A stretch of 37,854 nt of DNA from Acidobacteriota bacterium (GTDB lineage Bacteria > Actinomycetota > Thermoleophilia > Gaiellales > Gaiellaceae), in contig JAGWRZ010000135.1 of the NCBI GenBank assembly GCA_028876365.1, positions 1 through 37,854 of the forward strand, written 5' to 3'. Each line of letters opens with the position of its first letter. The first letter of the stretch is position 1. The notes beneath the pieces are model-generated. The model searched no databases and had not been told where the DNA came from. It was given only the letters and a program-made list of their open reading frames with translations. This document shows, piece by piece, positions 3,034-7,482 of this stretch. Position numbers and translations under genes: made by a program.

Positions 3034-3134
3034 GTTGACCTGACGCATAGCCGCGCCGAGTGGTGATTCCCCGTGCGGCGGGGTGCACCAGCCCACTCGG
3101 CCTACGACGTGCAAACGACCTCGGGGAGGAACCT
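3031..3134 (+). promoter_or_regulatory. Structured 5' leader of the Rpf-like gene
   Basis: A possible -10 box TAGGTT (3031-3036) precedes a leader of about 90 nt. The leader holds a nested hairpin: outer arms CCGAGTGG and CCACTCGG (perfect 8 bp, about 3056-3103) enclose a second stem CCCCG-tgcgg-CGGGG. It ends in a strong Shine-Dalgarno GGGGAGGA before the TTG start at 3135. Genes for Rpf and related wall hydrolases in Actinomycetota are often under c-di-AMP (ydaO-type) riboswitches, but this leader is short and I could not match it to that consensus, so it is left as an unclassified structured leader. Confidence 0.4.
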
Positions 3135-3695
3135 TTGCGGCGATTACTCCTGGCTTCGGCCGTGCTGTTCCTGTTCTGCGTGTCCGCGGCCCTCGGCGCC
3201 GAAGGGCCGGACGGAGGCAACGGGAAGCGGACGGCGCACGCGGGCCGCGGAGCGGCCCTGCGCTACCTGGAGGGCGAGCTCCGCGGGTACGAGCGGCAGA
3301 CGTGGTACTGGCAGAAGCTCACGGGCTCGCCCATCAGCCAGACCGCCGGCCGGACCCTGGCGGCGATGGCCGTCTCCGATCTCCAGCAGACGGTTCGGGT
3401 GTGGGAGGAGCGGGAGGCGAGGGCCCACCGCGTCGCCCAGCATCCACCGCACATGTCCGAGTGGATGTGCATCCACCACTACGAGGGAGCCTGGAACGAC
3501 GCCGGCGGCCCGTACTGGGGCGGCCTGCAGATGAGCCTCACCTTTCAGCAGCGCTACGGCGGCTGGATCTATGCGAAGAAGGGAACGGCCGACCACTGGA
3601 CCCCGCTCGAGCAGATCTGGACGGCGGAGAAGGCCCTCAAGACCAGGGGTTTTTGGCCCTGGCCGAACACGGCGAGGTTCTGCGGCCTGATCTGA
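3135..3695 (+). CDS. Secreted Rpf-like transglycosylase (resuscitation-promoting-factor fold)
   Basis: A 186-aa secreted protein. Residues 1-22 form a signal peptide (RRLLLASAVLFLF ... ALG|AEG). A charged helical linker follows (about 38-100), then an Rpf/lysozyme-like domain (about 109-186). In it CIHHYEGAW provides the catalytic glutamate (E117), followed by the family pattern PYWGGLQMSLTFQ and a closing WPWPNTARFCGLI; Cys112 and Cys183 probably form the domain disulphide. The enzyme would cleave peptidoglycan glycan strands outside the membrane during growth or exit from dormancy. The TTG start is chosen because GGGGAGGA sits 5 nt upstream and it opens directly on the signal peptide; other in-frame starts up to 3060 would spoil it. 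A structured leader precedes it. Confidence 0.88.
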   Translation: MRRLLLASAVLFLFCVSAALGAEGPDGGNGKRTAHAGRGAALRYLEGELRGYERQTWYWQKLTGSPISQTAGRTLAAMAVSDLQQTVRVWEEREARAHRVAQHPPHMSEWMCIHHYEGAWNDAGGPYWGGLQMSLTFQQRYGGWIYAKKGTADHWTPLEQIWTAEKALKTRGFWPWPNTARFCGLI

Positions 3696-3707
3696 CGTCA
3701 GCATGAC

Positions 3708-3737
3708 TTGACAATGACATCACTCTGATGTCATACT
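3708..3737 (+). promoter_or_regulatory. Promoter with embedded perfect operator for the RHH operon
   Basis: TTGACA (3708-3713) and CATACT (3732-3737) are 18 nt apart. CATACT ends 6 nt before the ATG at 3744, so transcription should start at or near the start codon (leaderless). Between and into the boxes lies a perfect inverted repeat: ATGACATCA (3714-3722), spacer ctc, TGATGTCAT (3726-3734). A related 8-bp palindrome TGACGTCA sits just upstream (3693-3700). A dimeric ribbon-helix-helix protein bound here would block RNA polymerase; the first gene of the operon encodes just such a protein. Confidence 0.8.
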
Positions 3738-3743
3738 GCCGTC

Positions 3744-4208
3744 ATGCAGATCGACGGCTACGTCCAGGCACTCCGAGAAGACCTCGCCCGGATCGCGGCG
3801 GTCGGCGACGCGTCGACCGCCCGCGCCGCCGAGCTCCTCTCGGTCGCGCTCGAGTCGGCCGTCGGGAGGCGCCTGCTCGAGGCGCTCTCCGAGGCCGCCC
3901 TCGAGCTGAACAGCCAGCTCGAGGAGGGACGGGTCGAGATCCGGTTCGCCGGAACCGACCCGGAGCTCGTCTACGTCGCAGACGACGAGGCCGCCGGCCC
4001 GGCGCCGGACCAGGCCGAGGAGGCGTTCACCGCCCGTATCACGCTGCGGCTGCCCGAGAGCCTGAAGACGCGGCTCGATGCGGCCGCCTCCCTCCACGGC
4101 GTGTCCGTGAACACGTGGCTCGTCCAGGTGCTCCAGCGCCAGCTCGAGTCGCGCACCCCGTCCGGCGGCGGCAACCGCCGCCGGCTGACCGGCTACGGCC
4201 GGAGCTGA
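3744..4208 (+). CDS. Ribbon-helix-helix (Arc/HicB-type) DNA-binding protein, probable autorepressor
   Basis: A 154-aa protein in two parts. The N-terminal part (1-90) is helical and acidic with a short beta segment (GRVEIRFAG). The C-terminal part is a ribbon-helix-helix domain: strand FTARITLRLP (95-104), helix ESLKTRLDAAASLHG (105-119) and helix SVNTWLVQVLQRQLE (121-135), ending in a basic tail (NRRRLTGYGRS). This matches the HicB/CopG/Arc family. No HicA-like toxin is adjacent, so it is better read as a regulator of its own operon (mini-gene, DUF4097 protein, two MFS transporters) than as an antitoxin. Its promoter contains a perfect inverted repeat, the expected type of RHH binding site. 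The ATG start is supported by the promoter placement. Confidence 0.85.
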   Translation: MQIDGYVQALREDLARIAAVGDASTARAAELLSVALESAVGRRLLEALSEAALELNSQLEEGRVEIRFAGTDPELVYVADDEAAGPAPDQAEEAFTARITLRLPESLKTRLDAAASLHGVSVNTWLVQVLQRQLESRTPSGGGNRRRLTGYGRS

Positions 4209-4220
4209 AAGGAGCCGGAG

Positions 4221-4301
4221 ATGTCGATCCTCCATCCCACGCCGCCGCCCACCGTCCGCATCCACTGGATCTACGACGACCCGTCCGATTGCGATGACTG
4301 A
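4221..4301 (+). CDS. 26-residue mini-protein gene, translationally coupled to the DUF4097 gene
   Basis: An ATG at 4221 follows a strong Shine-Dalgarno (AAAGGAG, 4208-4214) and opens a 26-codon frame ending in TGA at 4299-4301. The product is Pro-rich at the start (HPTPPPT), with an aromatic centre (IHWIY) and an acidic end (DDPSDCDD). Its stop region overlaps the start of the next gene (ATG at 4294) by 8 nt, and that gene has no ribosome site of its own. Translation of the mini-gene could therefore serve to load ribosomes onto the DUF4097 gene; whether the peptide itself does anything is unknown. Confidence 0.55.
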   Translation: MSILHPTPPPTVRIHWIYDDPSDCDD

Positions 4302-5052
4302 GCGGACCTTCCACACGCCGGAGCCGGTGACGCTCGAGGTGAAGGTCCCCGCCGGCGAGATCCTGGTGGAGACCGTCGACGGCGACGAGTCCTCCGTCGT
4401 CCTCGAGGGGCCGGACAAGCTCCTGGAGCAGACGCGCGTCGAGCTCTTCGGCAACCGCCTGGCGGTGGAGCTCGAGGTCAAGGGCCCGTTCGGGCTCACG
4501 ATCCAGATCGGCGACTGGAGCTTCGGCCGTGGAGGCCTTCGCGTCCGGGCCCGCGTGCCGCACGGAAGCTCGGCCGGCCTCGCCACCGCGTCCGCCGACA
4601 TGCGCATGCGGGGCACCTACGGGGCGCTCGACGTGAAGTCCGCGTCGGGGGACCTCGTCGTCGAGGGCGACGTCCACGAGGACGCGACGATCAAGACCGT
4701 GAGCGGGGACGTGCGCCTTCGGTCCGTCGGCGGCGAGCTGCGCGTGCAGACGGTGTCGGGCGACCTCCTCGCGGAGGCGGCCGGCGGCGACGTGACGACG
4801 AAGGCCGTCTCGGGCGACATCCGCATCGAGTCCGCACGCAGCGGGCACGTGACGGCGCAGTCGGTGTCCGGCGACATCGAGATCGGGGTCGCGCCGGGAA
4901 CGAACATCGACGTCGACGCCGGCTCGGTCTCGGGCGACCTCGCCTCGGAAGTGCCCCTGGCGAGCGAGGCAGGCGCGGTCGGCGACGGCCCGGTGCTCGT
5001 CGTGCGGGGGAAGACCGTCAGCGGCGACGTCAAGGTGTTCCGCGCGGTATGA
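4294..5052 (+). CDS. DUF4097-family beta-strand repeat protein
   Basis: A 252-aa protein without signal peptide or membrane span. The first 100 residues form beta-rich turns; from about residue 108 onward a repeat of about 20 residues built on (V/A)SGD recurs seven times (SASGDLVVEG, TVSGDVRLRS, TVSGDLLAEA, AVSGDIRIES, SVSGDIEIGV, SVSGDLASEV, TVSGDVKVF). This is the DUF4097 / putative adhesin-like beta-helix pattern. The family has no established biochemical function; members often sit beside regulators and membrane proteins. Here it lies between a ribbon-helix-helix regulator and two MFS transporters, and its stop overlaps the next start by 4 nt (ATGA). Being leaderless for export, it probably acts in the cytoplasm or is held at the membrane by partners. 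Confidence 0.85.
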   Translation: MTERTFHTPEPVTLEVKVPAGEILVETVDGDESSVVLEGPDKLLEQTRVELFGNRLAVELEVKGPFGLTIQIGDWSFGRGGLRVRARVPHGSSAGLATASADMRMRGTYGALDVKSASGDLVVEGDVHEDATIKTVSGDVRLRSVGGELRVQTVSGDLLAEAAGGDVTTKAVSGDIRIESARSGHVTAQSVSGDIEIGVAPGTNIDVDAGSVSGDLASEVPLASEAGAVGDGPVLVVRGKTVSGDVKVFRAV

Positions 5053-6251: not shown

Positions 6252-7482
6252 CCGCGACTTCATCCTGCTCCAGTCGGGGCAGGTGCTGTCGACGATCGGG
6301 TCGGAGTCGACCGCGATCGCCTATCCCCTGCTCGTGCTCGCCGTGACGCACTCGCCGGCGAAGGCGGGTGTCGTCGGCTTCCTCCGCATCCTGCCCTGGG
6401 CCCTGTTCGGCTTCGCCGCAGGCGTCGTGACGGATCGCCTGCCGCGCAAGCGCGTGATGATCACGGGAGACATCGTGCGCGTCCTCCTGATGGCAAGCGT
6501 CGTCGCCGCCGTCGCGCTCGGCCACATCACGTTCGTGCAGATCCTCCTCGTCGCGTTCGTCGAGGGCTCCATGTACGTGTTCTTCAACATCGCCGAGATC
6601 GGCGCGCTGCGCTCGGTCGTGCCGCCGCAGCAGCTGCCGACCGCGGCCGCGGCGGAGCAGGCGCGCTACTCGACCGTCACGCTCGTCGCGCCGACGCTCG
6701 GCGGCGCTCTCTTCGGCGTCGGCCGCATGTTCCCGTTCCTCGCCGGCGCGATCTCGCCCGGGTTCTCGCTCGGCTCGCTGCTCGCGATCCGGACGCCGTT
6801 CGAGCGCGAGCGGACGGCGGACGACGCGCCGTGGCGCACGCAGCTCGCGGAGGGATTCCGCTTCCTCTGGGCGCGCCCCTTCCTGCGCACGTGCGCGCTC
6901 CTCTTCACGTGGACGAACCTCGCCTTCGAGGGGATCGTGCTCGCCTTCATCGTCATCGCCCGGCGGCAGGGCCTCTCGAGCACCGAGATCGGGCTGCTCA
7001 TCGCGGCCTTCGGCGCGTGCTCGCTCGTCGGGTCGGCGGCGTCGCCGTGGATCCAGAAGCGGCTGTCGATGCGCGCGATCGTCGTTTCCTCGCTCTGGCT
7101 CCAGGTTGCGACGATCGGGTTCGTCGTCGATCCGAGCGTGTACGTGCTGATCGCGTGCTCCGTGCCGATGGCCCTCTTCTTCCCGACGGTCAACGCCGTC
7201 GTCATCGGCTACCGCGTTGCGGTGACGCCGGAGCGGCTGACGGGCCGCGTGAACTCGGTCGCGCGCACGATCGCGCTCTGCGGAGCGCCGCTCGGGCCCC
7301 TCGCCGCCGGCCTCATGCTCGGCGCGCTCTCGGCCCGCGAGACGATCGCCGTCCTGACGGGGATCCTCGCCGTGCTCGCCGTGCTCGCCTCGCTGCTCCC
7401 GTCGATCCGCAACGCGCCGACACTCGACGAGCTCGCGACGCTCCCGCTCACCGAGCCAGTCGTTCCCGAAGCAGTCGGTTGA
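6232..7482 (+). CDS. MFS transporter (second of a tandem pair), start uncertain
   Basis: A second 12-span MFS protein of about 400-416 aa. It keeps the loop 2/3 motif [14 protein letters not shown] and a central loop with [10 protein letters not shown]. The first standard start codon is GTG at 6283, but the frame encodes the typical family N-terminus [17 protein letters not shown] just upstream of it, with CTG at 6232 the only plausible initiator there. I therefore place the start at 6232, overlapping the previous gene by 20 nt; with GTG 6283 the protein would be 399 aa and lose the conserved lead into span 1. The pair could be two related exporters or a heterodimer. Its last 35 nt overlap the convergent gatB. 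Confidence 0.85.

What the first reader, a model, noticed from the sequence alone, without database searches (positions are those of the whole stretch)
3693..3744. Perfect operator nested inside a leaderless promoter of an RHH-regulator operon
Seen: TTGACA and CATACT 18 nt apart, with a perfect 9-bp inverted repeat (ATGACATCA-ctc-TGATGTCAT) filling the spacer and overlapping the -10, a related TGACGTCA palindrome just upstream, and the ATG 6 nt after the -10. The first gene encodes a ribbon-helix-helix protein. Inference: tight autorepression of an operon that also encodes a DUF4097 protein and two MFS exporters, perhaps lifted by the exported ligand or by a DUF4097-linked signal.
Basis: partly seen in the sequence, partly recalled or inferred. 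Interest (0 to 1): 0.55.

Follow-up and report, generated by a model that had tools for sequence, protein, structure and literature searches.

The report
Self-repressor operator array with recognition code
A bacterial regulator gene seems to carry, inside its own promoter, a row of short DNA boxes spaced one helical turn apart, and across many relatives the box sequence changes together with one amino acid in the regulator's DNA-reading strand, which would make it a clear natural example of a protein-DNA recognition code.

Summary
In detail: TTGACA (3708-3713), CATACT (3732-3737), a perfect inverted repeat between them (3714-3734), ATG 6 nt after the -10. But the inverted repeat is not the unit. 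It is two of five in-phase 8-bp positions exactly 11 bp apart (3693, 3704, 3715, 3726, 3737); the -35 sits in the weak second slot. Four of the five such sites in the 2.6-Mb genome are this array.

Of 229 promoters of related RHH genes, 205 carry adjacent TGNYRNCA boxes at 11-bp spacing. A Toastrack/DUF4097 gene lies downstream in 215 of 222 loci.

Box positions 3/6 follow RHH residue 100: Thr with TGAYRTCA, Asn with TGGYRCCA. All 46 Asn promoters have a core G fraction of at least 0.5, all 113 Thr promoters at most 0.5; GC content does not explain it; 5 of 5 mixed families agree. Independent switches are few.

Best reading: an autorepressor whose dimers occupy neighbouring boxes over a leaderless promoter of an RHH-Toastrack-exporter operon. 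The kind is known (MetJ, Arc, ParR); my searches found no report of this operator or its code. Binding, repression and inducer are untested.

The parts
3693..3700 (.). box -3, TGACGTCA, perfect octamer; its TGA is also the stop codon of the upstream ORF 3060-3695
3704..3711 (.). in-phase slot -2, TGACTTGA, degenerate, shared with the -35 hexamer
   Evidence: in relatives this slot is mostly not a box (13 of 205 with 3 or 4 of the TG..CA letters)
3708..3713 (+). -35 hexamer TTGACA
3732..3737 (+). -10 hexamer CATACT; predicted start of transcription at about 3744
   Evidence: start site inferred
3737..3744 (.). box +1, TGCCGTCA, one mismatch; its last base is the A of the start codon
3744..4208 (+). 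regulator, 154 aa: N-terminal helical plus beta-hairpin domain (1-80) and C-terminal RHH domain; DNA-reading strand R98-I-T100-L-R102
4221..4301 (+). 26-codon ORF after an AAAGGAG motif; in several relatives the ORF at this place is a second RHH-like domain; overlaps the start of DUF4097
4294..5052 (+). Toastrack (DUF4097) protein, 252 aa
5049..6251 (+). MFS transporter 1
6283..7482 (+). MFS transporter 2

Best explanation
The stretch 3693-3744 is the operator of the RHH protein encoded right behind it. One RHH dimer binds each 8-bp palindrome-like box (consensus TGAYRTCA) by putting its two-stranded sheet into the major groove; boxes 11 bp apart put neighbouring dimers on the same face of the DNA, so that they can bind side by side from the -35 region to the start codon and keep RNA polymerase off a promoter of leaderless layout. 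The protein thus limits its own synthesis and that of the Toastrack and exporter genes behind it. Residue 100 in the middle of the reading strand sets base pair 3/6 of the box: Thr (also Ser or Ala with Ala97) with A-T, Asn with G-C. Shown here: sequence, register, conservation, operon context, covariation. Inferred: binding, one dimer per box, side-by-side occupancy, repression, leaderless mRNA, and that residue 100 causes the difference.
For: Array: 205 of 229 promoters have two adjacent TGNYRNCA boxes at 11-bp spacing with score 9 or more of 10, 181 with the full score; shuffled promoters (4,580) reach 9 in 0.2% and 10 in none; full-score counts at other spacings of 8-23 bp are 0-22, except 89 at 22 bp, twice the period. 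The slot three turns up, mostly outside the pair used to set the register, has 3 or 4 of the TG..CA letters in 59 of 205, against 1.8% at off-phase places. Layout: the upstream box of the pair starts 18 nt before the start codon in 125 of 205; a Shine-Dalgarno-like 4-mer lies at -18..-4 in 2 of 205. Locality: exact two-box patterns in 9 Asn-type and 12 further genomes give 15 sites, 13 of them at the RHH gene (positions compared); another lies before a lone Toastrack gene in G582. Protein: R98 and R102 are Arg in 242 of 242 relatives while position 100 is T 133, N 58, S 48, A 3; the profile aligns position 100 with Asn11 of Arc, and Arc Gln9, Asn11 and Arg13 contact bases (PMC12645479, passages). 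Covariation: mean G fraction in boxes 12 nt or more upstream of the start is 0.88 for N (46), 0.13 for T (113), 0.26 for S (42), 0 for A (2); all N at 0.5 or more, all T at 0.5 or less; it holds in the GC bands that hold both, spacer GC does not differ (0.35 against 0.37), and 5 of 5 families that hold both agree.
Against: No binding, footprint, expression or transcript-end data. 24 of 229 promoters lack the pair in the first 70 nt; 14 of these have one within -400..+150, found in a wider search after the fact, and 10 do not (several had under 255 nt upstream). At the looser threshold of 9, spacings 8 and 14 also score (103 and 90 of 229) and 22 scores 142. Phylogenetic independence is thin: at least 6 changes to or from Asn on a tree of short proteins, only 1 pair on supported branches, no significance possible; box class changes at least 19 times, so it also moves without residue 100. 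Residue 97 matters too: Ser97 goes with mixed boxes (mean G fraction 0.30 with Thr100, 0.46 with Ser100). 5 of 5 families is p = 0.06 two-sided. The structure model is of a monomer, pTM 0.46, and the reading strand is not formed in it.
Confidence: 0.83

Rival explanations
1. The boxes are the site of another regulator of the same cell, and the RHH gene is merely its best conserved target.
For: No binding data exist. G721 has a two-box site away from the RHH gene with no Toastrack or RHH hit in the 3.5 kb fetched around it.
Against: The box sequence follows a residue of the RHH reading strand; 13 of 15 exact sites in 21 genomes lie at the RHH gene; in the window's genome the array stands alone; autoregulation by overlapping boxes is usual for RHH proteins (recalled; also passages in PMC5016525).
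Confidence: 0.07
2. The operator is a single inverted repeat read by one RHH tetramer; the other in-phase boxes are remnants.
For: In the window only boxes 3715 and 3726 are a perfect adjacent pair, and box 3693 borrows its TGA from a stop codon.
Against: In many relatives the perfect pair is another one: boxes 0 and +1 in a direct order; slot -3 is enriched over off-phase places (59 of 205 against 1.8%); some relatives show three boxes in a row, for example L262, L245 and L073.
Confidence: 0.15
3. The link of box and residue 100 is descent or base composition, not recognition.
For: Few supported independent switches; GC has a weak effect of its own (t 2.6).
Against: Asn and Thr promoters differ alike in the GC bands that hold both (0.62-0.66: 0.75 and 0.10, with one Asn promoter; 0.66-0.70: 0.92 and 0.06; 0.70-0.76: 0.89 and 0.17); the 3-nt spacers do not differ; 5 of 5 mixed families agree.
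Confidence: 0.15
4. It is a HicAB toxin-antitoxin locus, as NCBI's name 'toxin-antitoxin system HicB family antitoxin' for relatives suggests.
For: Pfam HicB matches the RHH part; plasmid-borne relatives carry the name.
Against: No HicA match in the window's genome (draft, 89.5% complete); the neighbour in 215 of 222 loci is a Toastrack gene.
Confidence: 0.03

Closest known systems
Arc repressor of phage P22
   Same: RHH reading strand aligned residue for residue: Gln9-Asn11-Arg13 against Arg98-Thr/Asn100-Arg102 (contacts from passages of PMC12645479); two dimers in two adjacent major grooves of one operator; Arc RHH is a partial structural match (TM 0.67 by its length, but Foldseek E 1.1).
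   Different: Arc is a 53-residue protein with a 21-bp operator; here there is an extra N-terminal domain and an array of up to five in-phase positions in a chromosomal promoter.
MetJ of E. coli
   Same: 8-bp palindromic boxes, one RHH dimer each, in tandem, autorepression; the MetJ box AGACGTCT shares the core GACGTC (recalled, no call).
   Different: MetJ boxes abut every 8 bp (recalled); here 11 bp. MetJ has a known regulon and co-repressor; here the site is nearly always at the gene itself.
ParR of type II plasmid partition
   Same: RHH dimers each bind one repeat of a tandem array around the promoter of their own operon and repress it (passages of PMC5016525).
   Different: ParR works with a ParM filament in DNA segregation; here the partners are Toastrack and transporter genes.
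AmrZ of Pseudomonas aeruginosa
   Same: Three reading-strand residues Lys18-Val20-Arg22 set specificity, and the middle one chooses the base (passages of PMC3325190); profile match E 0.021.
   Different: AmrZ recognises GGC half-sites and also activates.
RHH-Toastrack-transporter operons of Actinobacteria
   Same: The gene association is in print: an operon in Actinobacteria with an RHH factor beside a Toastrack protein and ABC transporter genes, proposed to link membrane-stress sensing, transcription and transport (passages of PMC11237479).
   Different: The passages that I saw give no operator, no autoregulation and no recognition residues; the window's operon has MFS instead of ABC exporters.

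Membership tests
RHH (Arc/MetJ/HicB-type) DNA-binding proteins | RHH domain with alternating base-contact residues on a short strand | tested here: met
   Pfam HicB 32.6 bits, cut-off 21; alignment to Arc and AtaR; R98 and R102 Arg in 242 of 242
RHH (Arc/MetJ/HicB-type) DNA-binding proteins | dimer with an intermolecular two-stranded sheet | not testable with these tools
   only a monomer was modelled
autoregulatory RHH operons with tandem boxes (MetJ/ParR-like way of working) | repeated boxes in one helical register over the gene's own promoter | tested here: met
autoregulatory RHH operons with tandem boxes (MetJ/ParR-like way of working) | the protein binds the boxes and represses | not testable with these tools
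   no binding or expression data
HicAB toxin-antitoxin | hicA toxin gene beside hicB | tested here: not met
   no PF07927 match in the draft genome; the neighbour is a Toastrack gene in 215 of 222 loci
HicAB toxin-antitoxin | N-terminal HicB-type domain before the RHH part (recalled) | tested here: inconclusive
   no Pfam match to residues 1-80 at E 0.1; the listed PDB fold matches with RHH names cover the RHH part only
RHH-Toastrack-transporter operon of PMC11237479 | RHH gene followed by Toastrack and transporter genes | tested here: met
   window; Toastrack in 19 of 19 longer loci and a match to the window's MFS proteins in 13 of 19; ABC genes in Streptomyces cadmiisoli
leaderless transcripts | transcription starts at the start codon | not testable with these tools
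   layout only: -10 ends 6 nt before the ATG

The most novel reading that the evidence does not exclude
The operon is a membrane-stress module in which RHH dimers coat the promoter box by box and the Toastrack protein, placed under the membrane, pulls the repressor off when the envelope is disturbed, releasing exporters; and across the phylum one residue (100, with help from 97) has switched operator letters, giving a family of naturally orthogonal repressor-operator pairs readable from sequence alone.
Probability: 0.25. Interest if true: 0.75.

Novelty: new variant of a known kind. Interest (0 to 1): 0.56.

Why it matters
Few regulator families offer one operator architecture kept over a whole phylum with a clean, testable switch between protein residue and base pair. 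If right, a single substitution (T100N or its reverse) should move binding from TGAYRTCA to TGGYRCCA, which would help read RHH operators from sequence. It also says that many genes named 'HicB family antitoxin' in Actinomycetota are more likely autorepressors of Toastrack-exporter operons than antitoxins, and it gives a handle (the derepressed strain) on what the Toastrack proteins sense.

Tried and rejected
Rejected: a single inverted repeat as the unit (other in-phase pairs are perfect in relatives); HicAB; GC drift as the cause of the TGA/TGG difference; a wide regulon (13 of 15 exact sites lie at the RHH gene).

Led nowhere: the tree-based test of covariation had too few supported switches; Foldseek gave no match at E 0.001 or better and nothing useful for the N-terminal domain; a paper search for the box letters gave 323 papers, of which 15 were listed, none on a bacterial regulator by title; searches for DUF4097 with HicB, for HicB with leaderless and actinobacteria, and for MetJ contacts gave nothing of use.

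Rows dropped before counts: of 242 loci with an RHH hit, 13 were left out for identical promoter-and-start sequence or under 75 nt upstream, leaving 229; 24 more scored under 9, leaving 205; 2 more had no full core box, leaving 203 for the core counts. Left out before that: L001, L032-L034 and L259 (copies of other loci) and L036-L054 (longer copies). Genomes were drawn samples; rows beyond the listed tables were not seen. Of the matches not all were fetched. A few start codons were mis-set by my script (for example L061 and L062, boxes at -69).

Full report
What is there. The finding's letters are all present and far beyond chance. Reading the region in 11-bp steps shows what the inverted repeat belongs to: TGACGTCA 3693, TGACTTGA 3704, TGACATCA 3715, TGATGTCA 3726, TGCCGTCA 3737. 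A scan of the whole draft genome for two boxes with up to 2 mismatches returns five sites: four are successive steps of this array and one lies within long open reading frames elsewhere. The reversed control pattern gave none.

The gene row. The regulator (3744-4208) has a C-terminal RHH domain and an N-terminal domain of two helices and a beta hairpin. Behind it come a 26-codon ORF (4221-4301), a Toastrack (DUF4097) gene, and two MFS genes. In 19 longer loci of relatives a Toastrack gene follows in 19 and a match to the window's MFS proteins is present in 13. In a named Streptomyces plasmid the order is RHH (annotated as HicB family antitoxin), DUF4097, ABC ATPase, permease, with boxes TGGCGCCA and TGGTGCCA 11 bp apart and an Asn at position 100.

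Spread. Searches of drawn genome samples found relatives in 34 of 61 near relatives, 70 of 396 of the phylum at E 0.001 (many of these are weak matches to the RHH part only), 138 of 394 of the class of G083 at E 1e-10 and 67 of 299 of the window's class at E 1e-10. Named relatives are labelled Actinomycetota or Solirubrobacterales and Streptomyces, Streptantibioticus, Embleya, Nonomuraea and Tsukamurella.

The array in relatives. I scored adjacent octamers for TG, CA and a pyrimidine-purine centre, leaving positions 3 and 6 free. Of 229 promoters, 205 reach 9 of 10 and 181 reach 10 at 11-bp spacing; full-score counts at other spacings of 8-23 bp are 0-22, except 89 at 22 bp; at the looser threshold spacings 8, 14 and 22 also rise, to 103, 90 and 142. 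Shuffled promoters reach 9 in 0.2% and 10 in none of 4,580. The slot at -3, mostly outside the pair that set the register, is enriched (59 of 205, off-phase 1.8%); slot -2, where the -35 lies, is not a box in most (13 of 205). Of the 24 that failed, 14 have a pair further off, within -400..+150, and 10 have none.

Layout. The upstream box of the pair begins 18 nt before the start codon in 125 of 205. A Shine-Dalgarno-like 4-mer at -18..-4 is present in 2 of 205 RHH starts and at 181 of 215 Toastrack starts; in the second count the start was chosen among candidates with such a motif where one existed, so that figure leans upward. This is a leaderless layout; no transcript end was seen.

The code. 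Arg98 and Arg102 are Arg in 242 of 242 relatives and position 100 is Thr 133, Asn 58, Ser 48, Ala 3. Half-sites read TGA in 365 of 446 for Thr, 118 of 168 for Ser and 7 of 7 for Ala, and TGG in 140 of 180 for Asn. In boxes at least 12 nt upstream of the start the mean G fraction is 0.88 for Asn (46 promoters), 0.13 for Thr (113), 0.26 for Ser (42) and 0 for Ala (2); no Asn promoter lies under 0.5 and no Thr promoter over 0.5. The two Ala100 promoters with an array, both of one family, have TGATATCA boxes; the third Ala100 locus has no array. Residue 97 adds to it: Ser97 goes with mixed boxes (t 9.3 in a regression that also holds Asn100, t 25.9, and GC, t 2.6; R2 0.80, not corrected for descent). 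L063 is worth a look: by eye its N- and C-termini resemble the Asn type, but it has Thr and a TGACGTCA box.

Limits of the code. On a tree of these short proteins, built without the strand's columns, Asn changes at least 6 times and the box class at least 19 times; only one independent pair lies on supported branches. Five of five families that hold both kinds agree, p = 0.06 two-sided. So the association is strong, composition does not explain it (spacer GC 0.35 against 0.37), but descent is only partly ruled out.

Locality. In 9 genomes of two genera with Asn-type proteins the exact pattern gives 7 sites, 6 at the RHH gene; in 12 further genomes the Thr-type pattern gives 8 sites, 7 at the RHH gene. 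The seventh Asn-type site (G582) stands before a Toastrack gene that has no RHH gene within the 3.5 kb fetched, which fits a regulator whose business is Toastrack genes. Three of the 9 and six of the 12 genomes gave no exact site; of the 12, G181 had no match to the protein and G138 only a weak one.

Mechanism. RHH dimers recognise short palindromes with two strands in the major groove. The profile aligns residue 100 with Asn11 of Arc, one of three base-contacting residues of Arc; in AmrZ the middle residue chooses the base. Arg98 or Arg102 would read the invariant G of TG/CA, and residue 100 the next base pair; this assignment is inference. Eleven base pairs is about one turn, so that neighbouring dimers share a face and could touch; in ParR such dimers coat repeats around their own promoter and repress it. 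I infer the same here: occupancy from the -35 to the start codon blocks transcription. What lifts it is unknown. The Toastrack neighbour, kept in 215 of 222 loci, is the best candidate for the partner, and Toastrack proteins have been proposed to build sub-membrane signalling complexes.

What is new. The gene association is in print. In the papers searched (open-licence full texts only) I found no description of this operator or of the residue-100 switch. The way of working is that of known tandem-box RHH autorepressors; hence a new variant of a known kind.

Noticed in passing
window 4221-4301; L006, L016, L025, L028: A small ORF sits between the RHH and DUF4097 genes. In the window's genus it often carries HW[IV]Y[DE]DPSG-like letters; in L006, L016, L025 and L028 the ORF at this place is a second RHH-like domain, so it may be a decayed tandem copy.
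   Followed up: partly
L268 (G582), site at about 1544: A TGGYRCCA pair lies before a lone Toastrack gene far from the RHH gene, a likely second target of the regulator.
   Followed up: partly
window 3060-3695: The upstream ORF has a weak, sub-cut-off match to transglycosylase/resuscitation-factor models; its stop codon TGA is part of box 3693, so the array begins inside this gene's end.
   Followed up: no
L269 (G721), site at about 1559: A TGACATCA pair lies away from the RHH gene with no RHH or Toastrack hit in the 3.5 kb fetched.
   Followed up: no
L073, L078, L080, L081, L257, L258: In distant relatives the array stands about 120-300 nt before the RHH start, often with three boxes in a row, as if another short gene or leader lay between.
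   Followed up: no
L169, L179, L187, L204, L233, L244: Proteins with Arg-Thr-Thr-Leu-Arg in the reading strand go with asymmetric boxes TGACACCA/TGGTGTCA, a possible third letter of the code.
   Followed up: no
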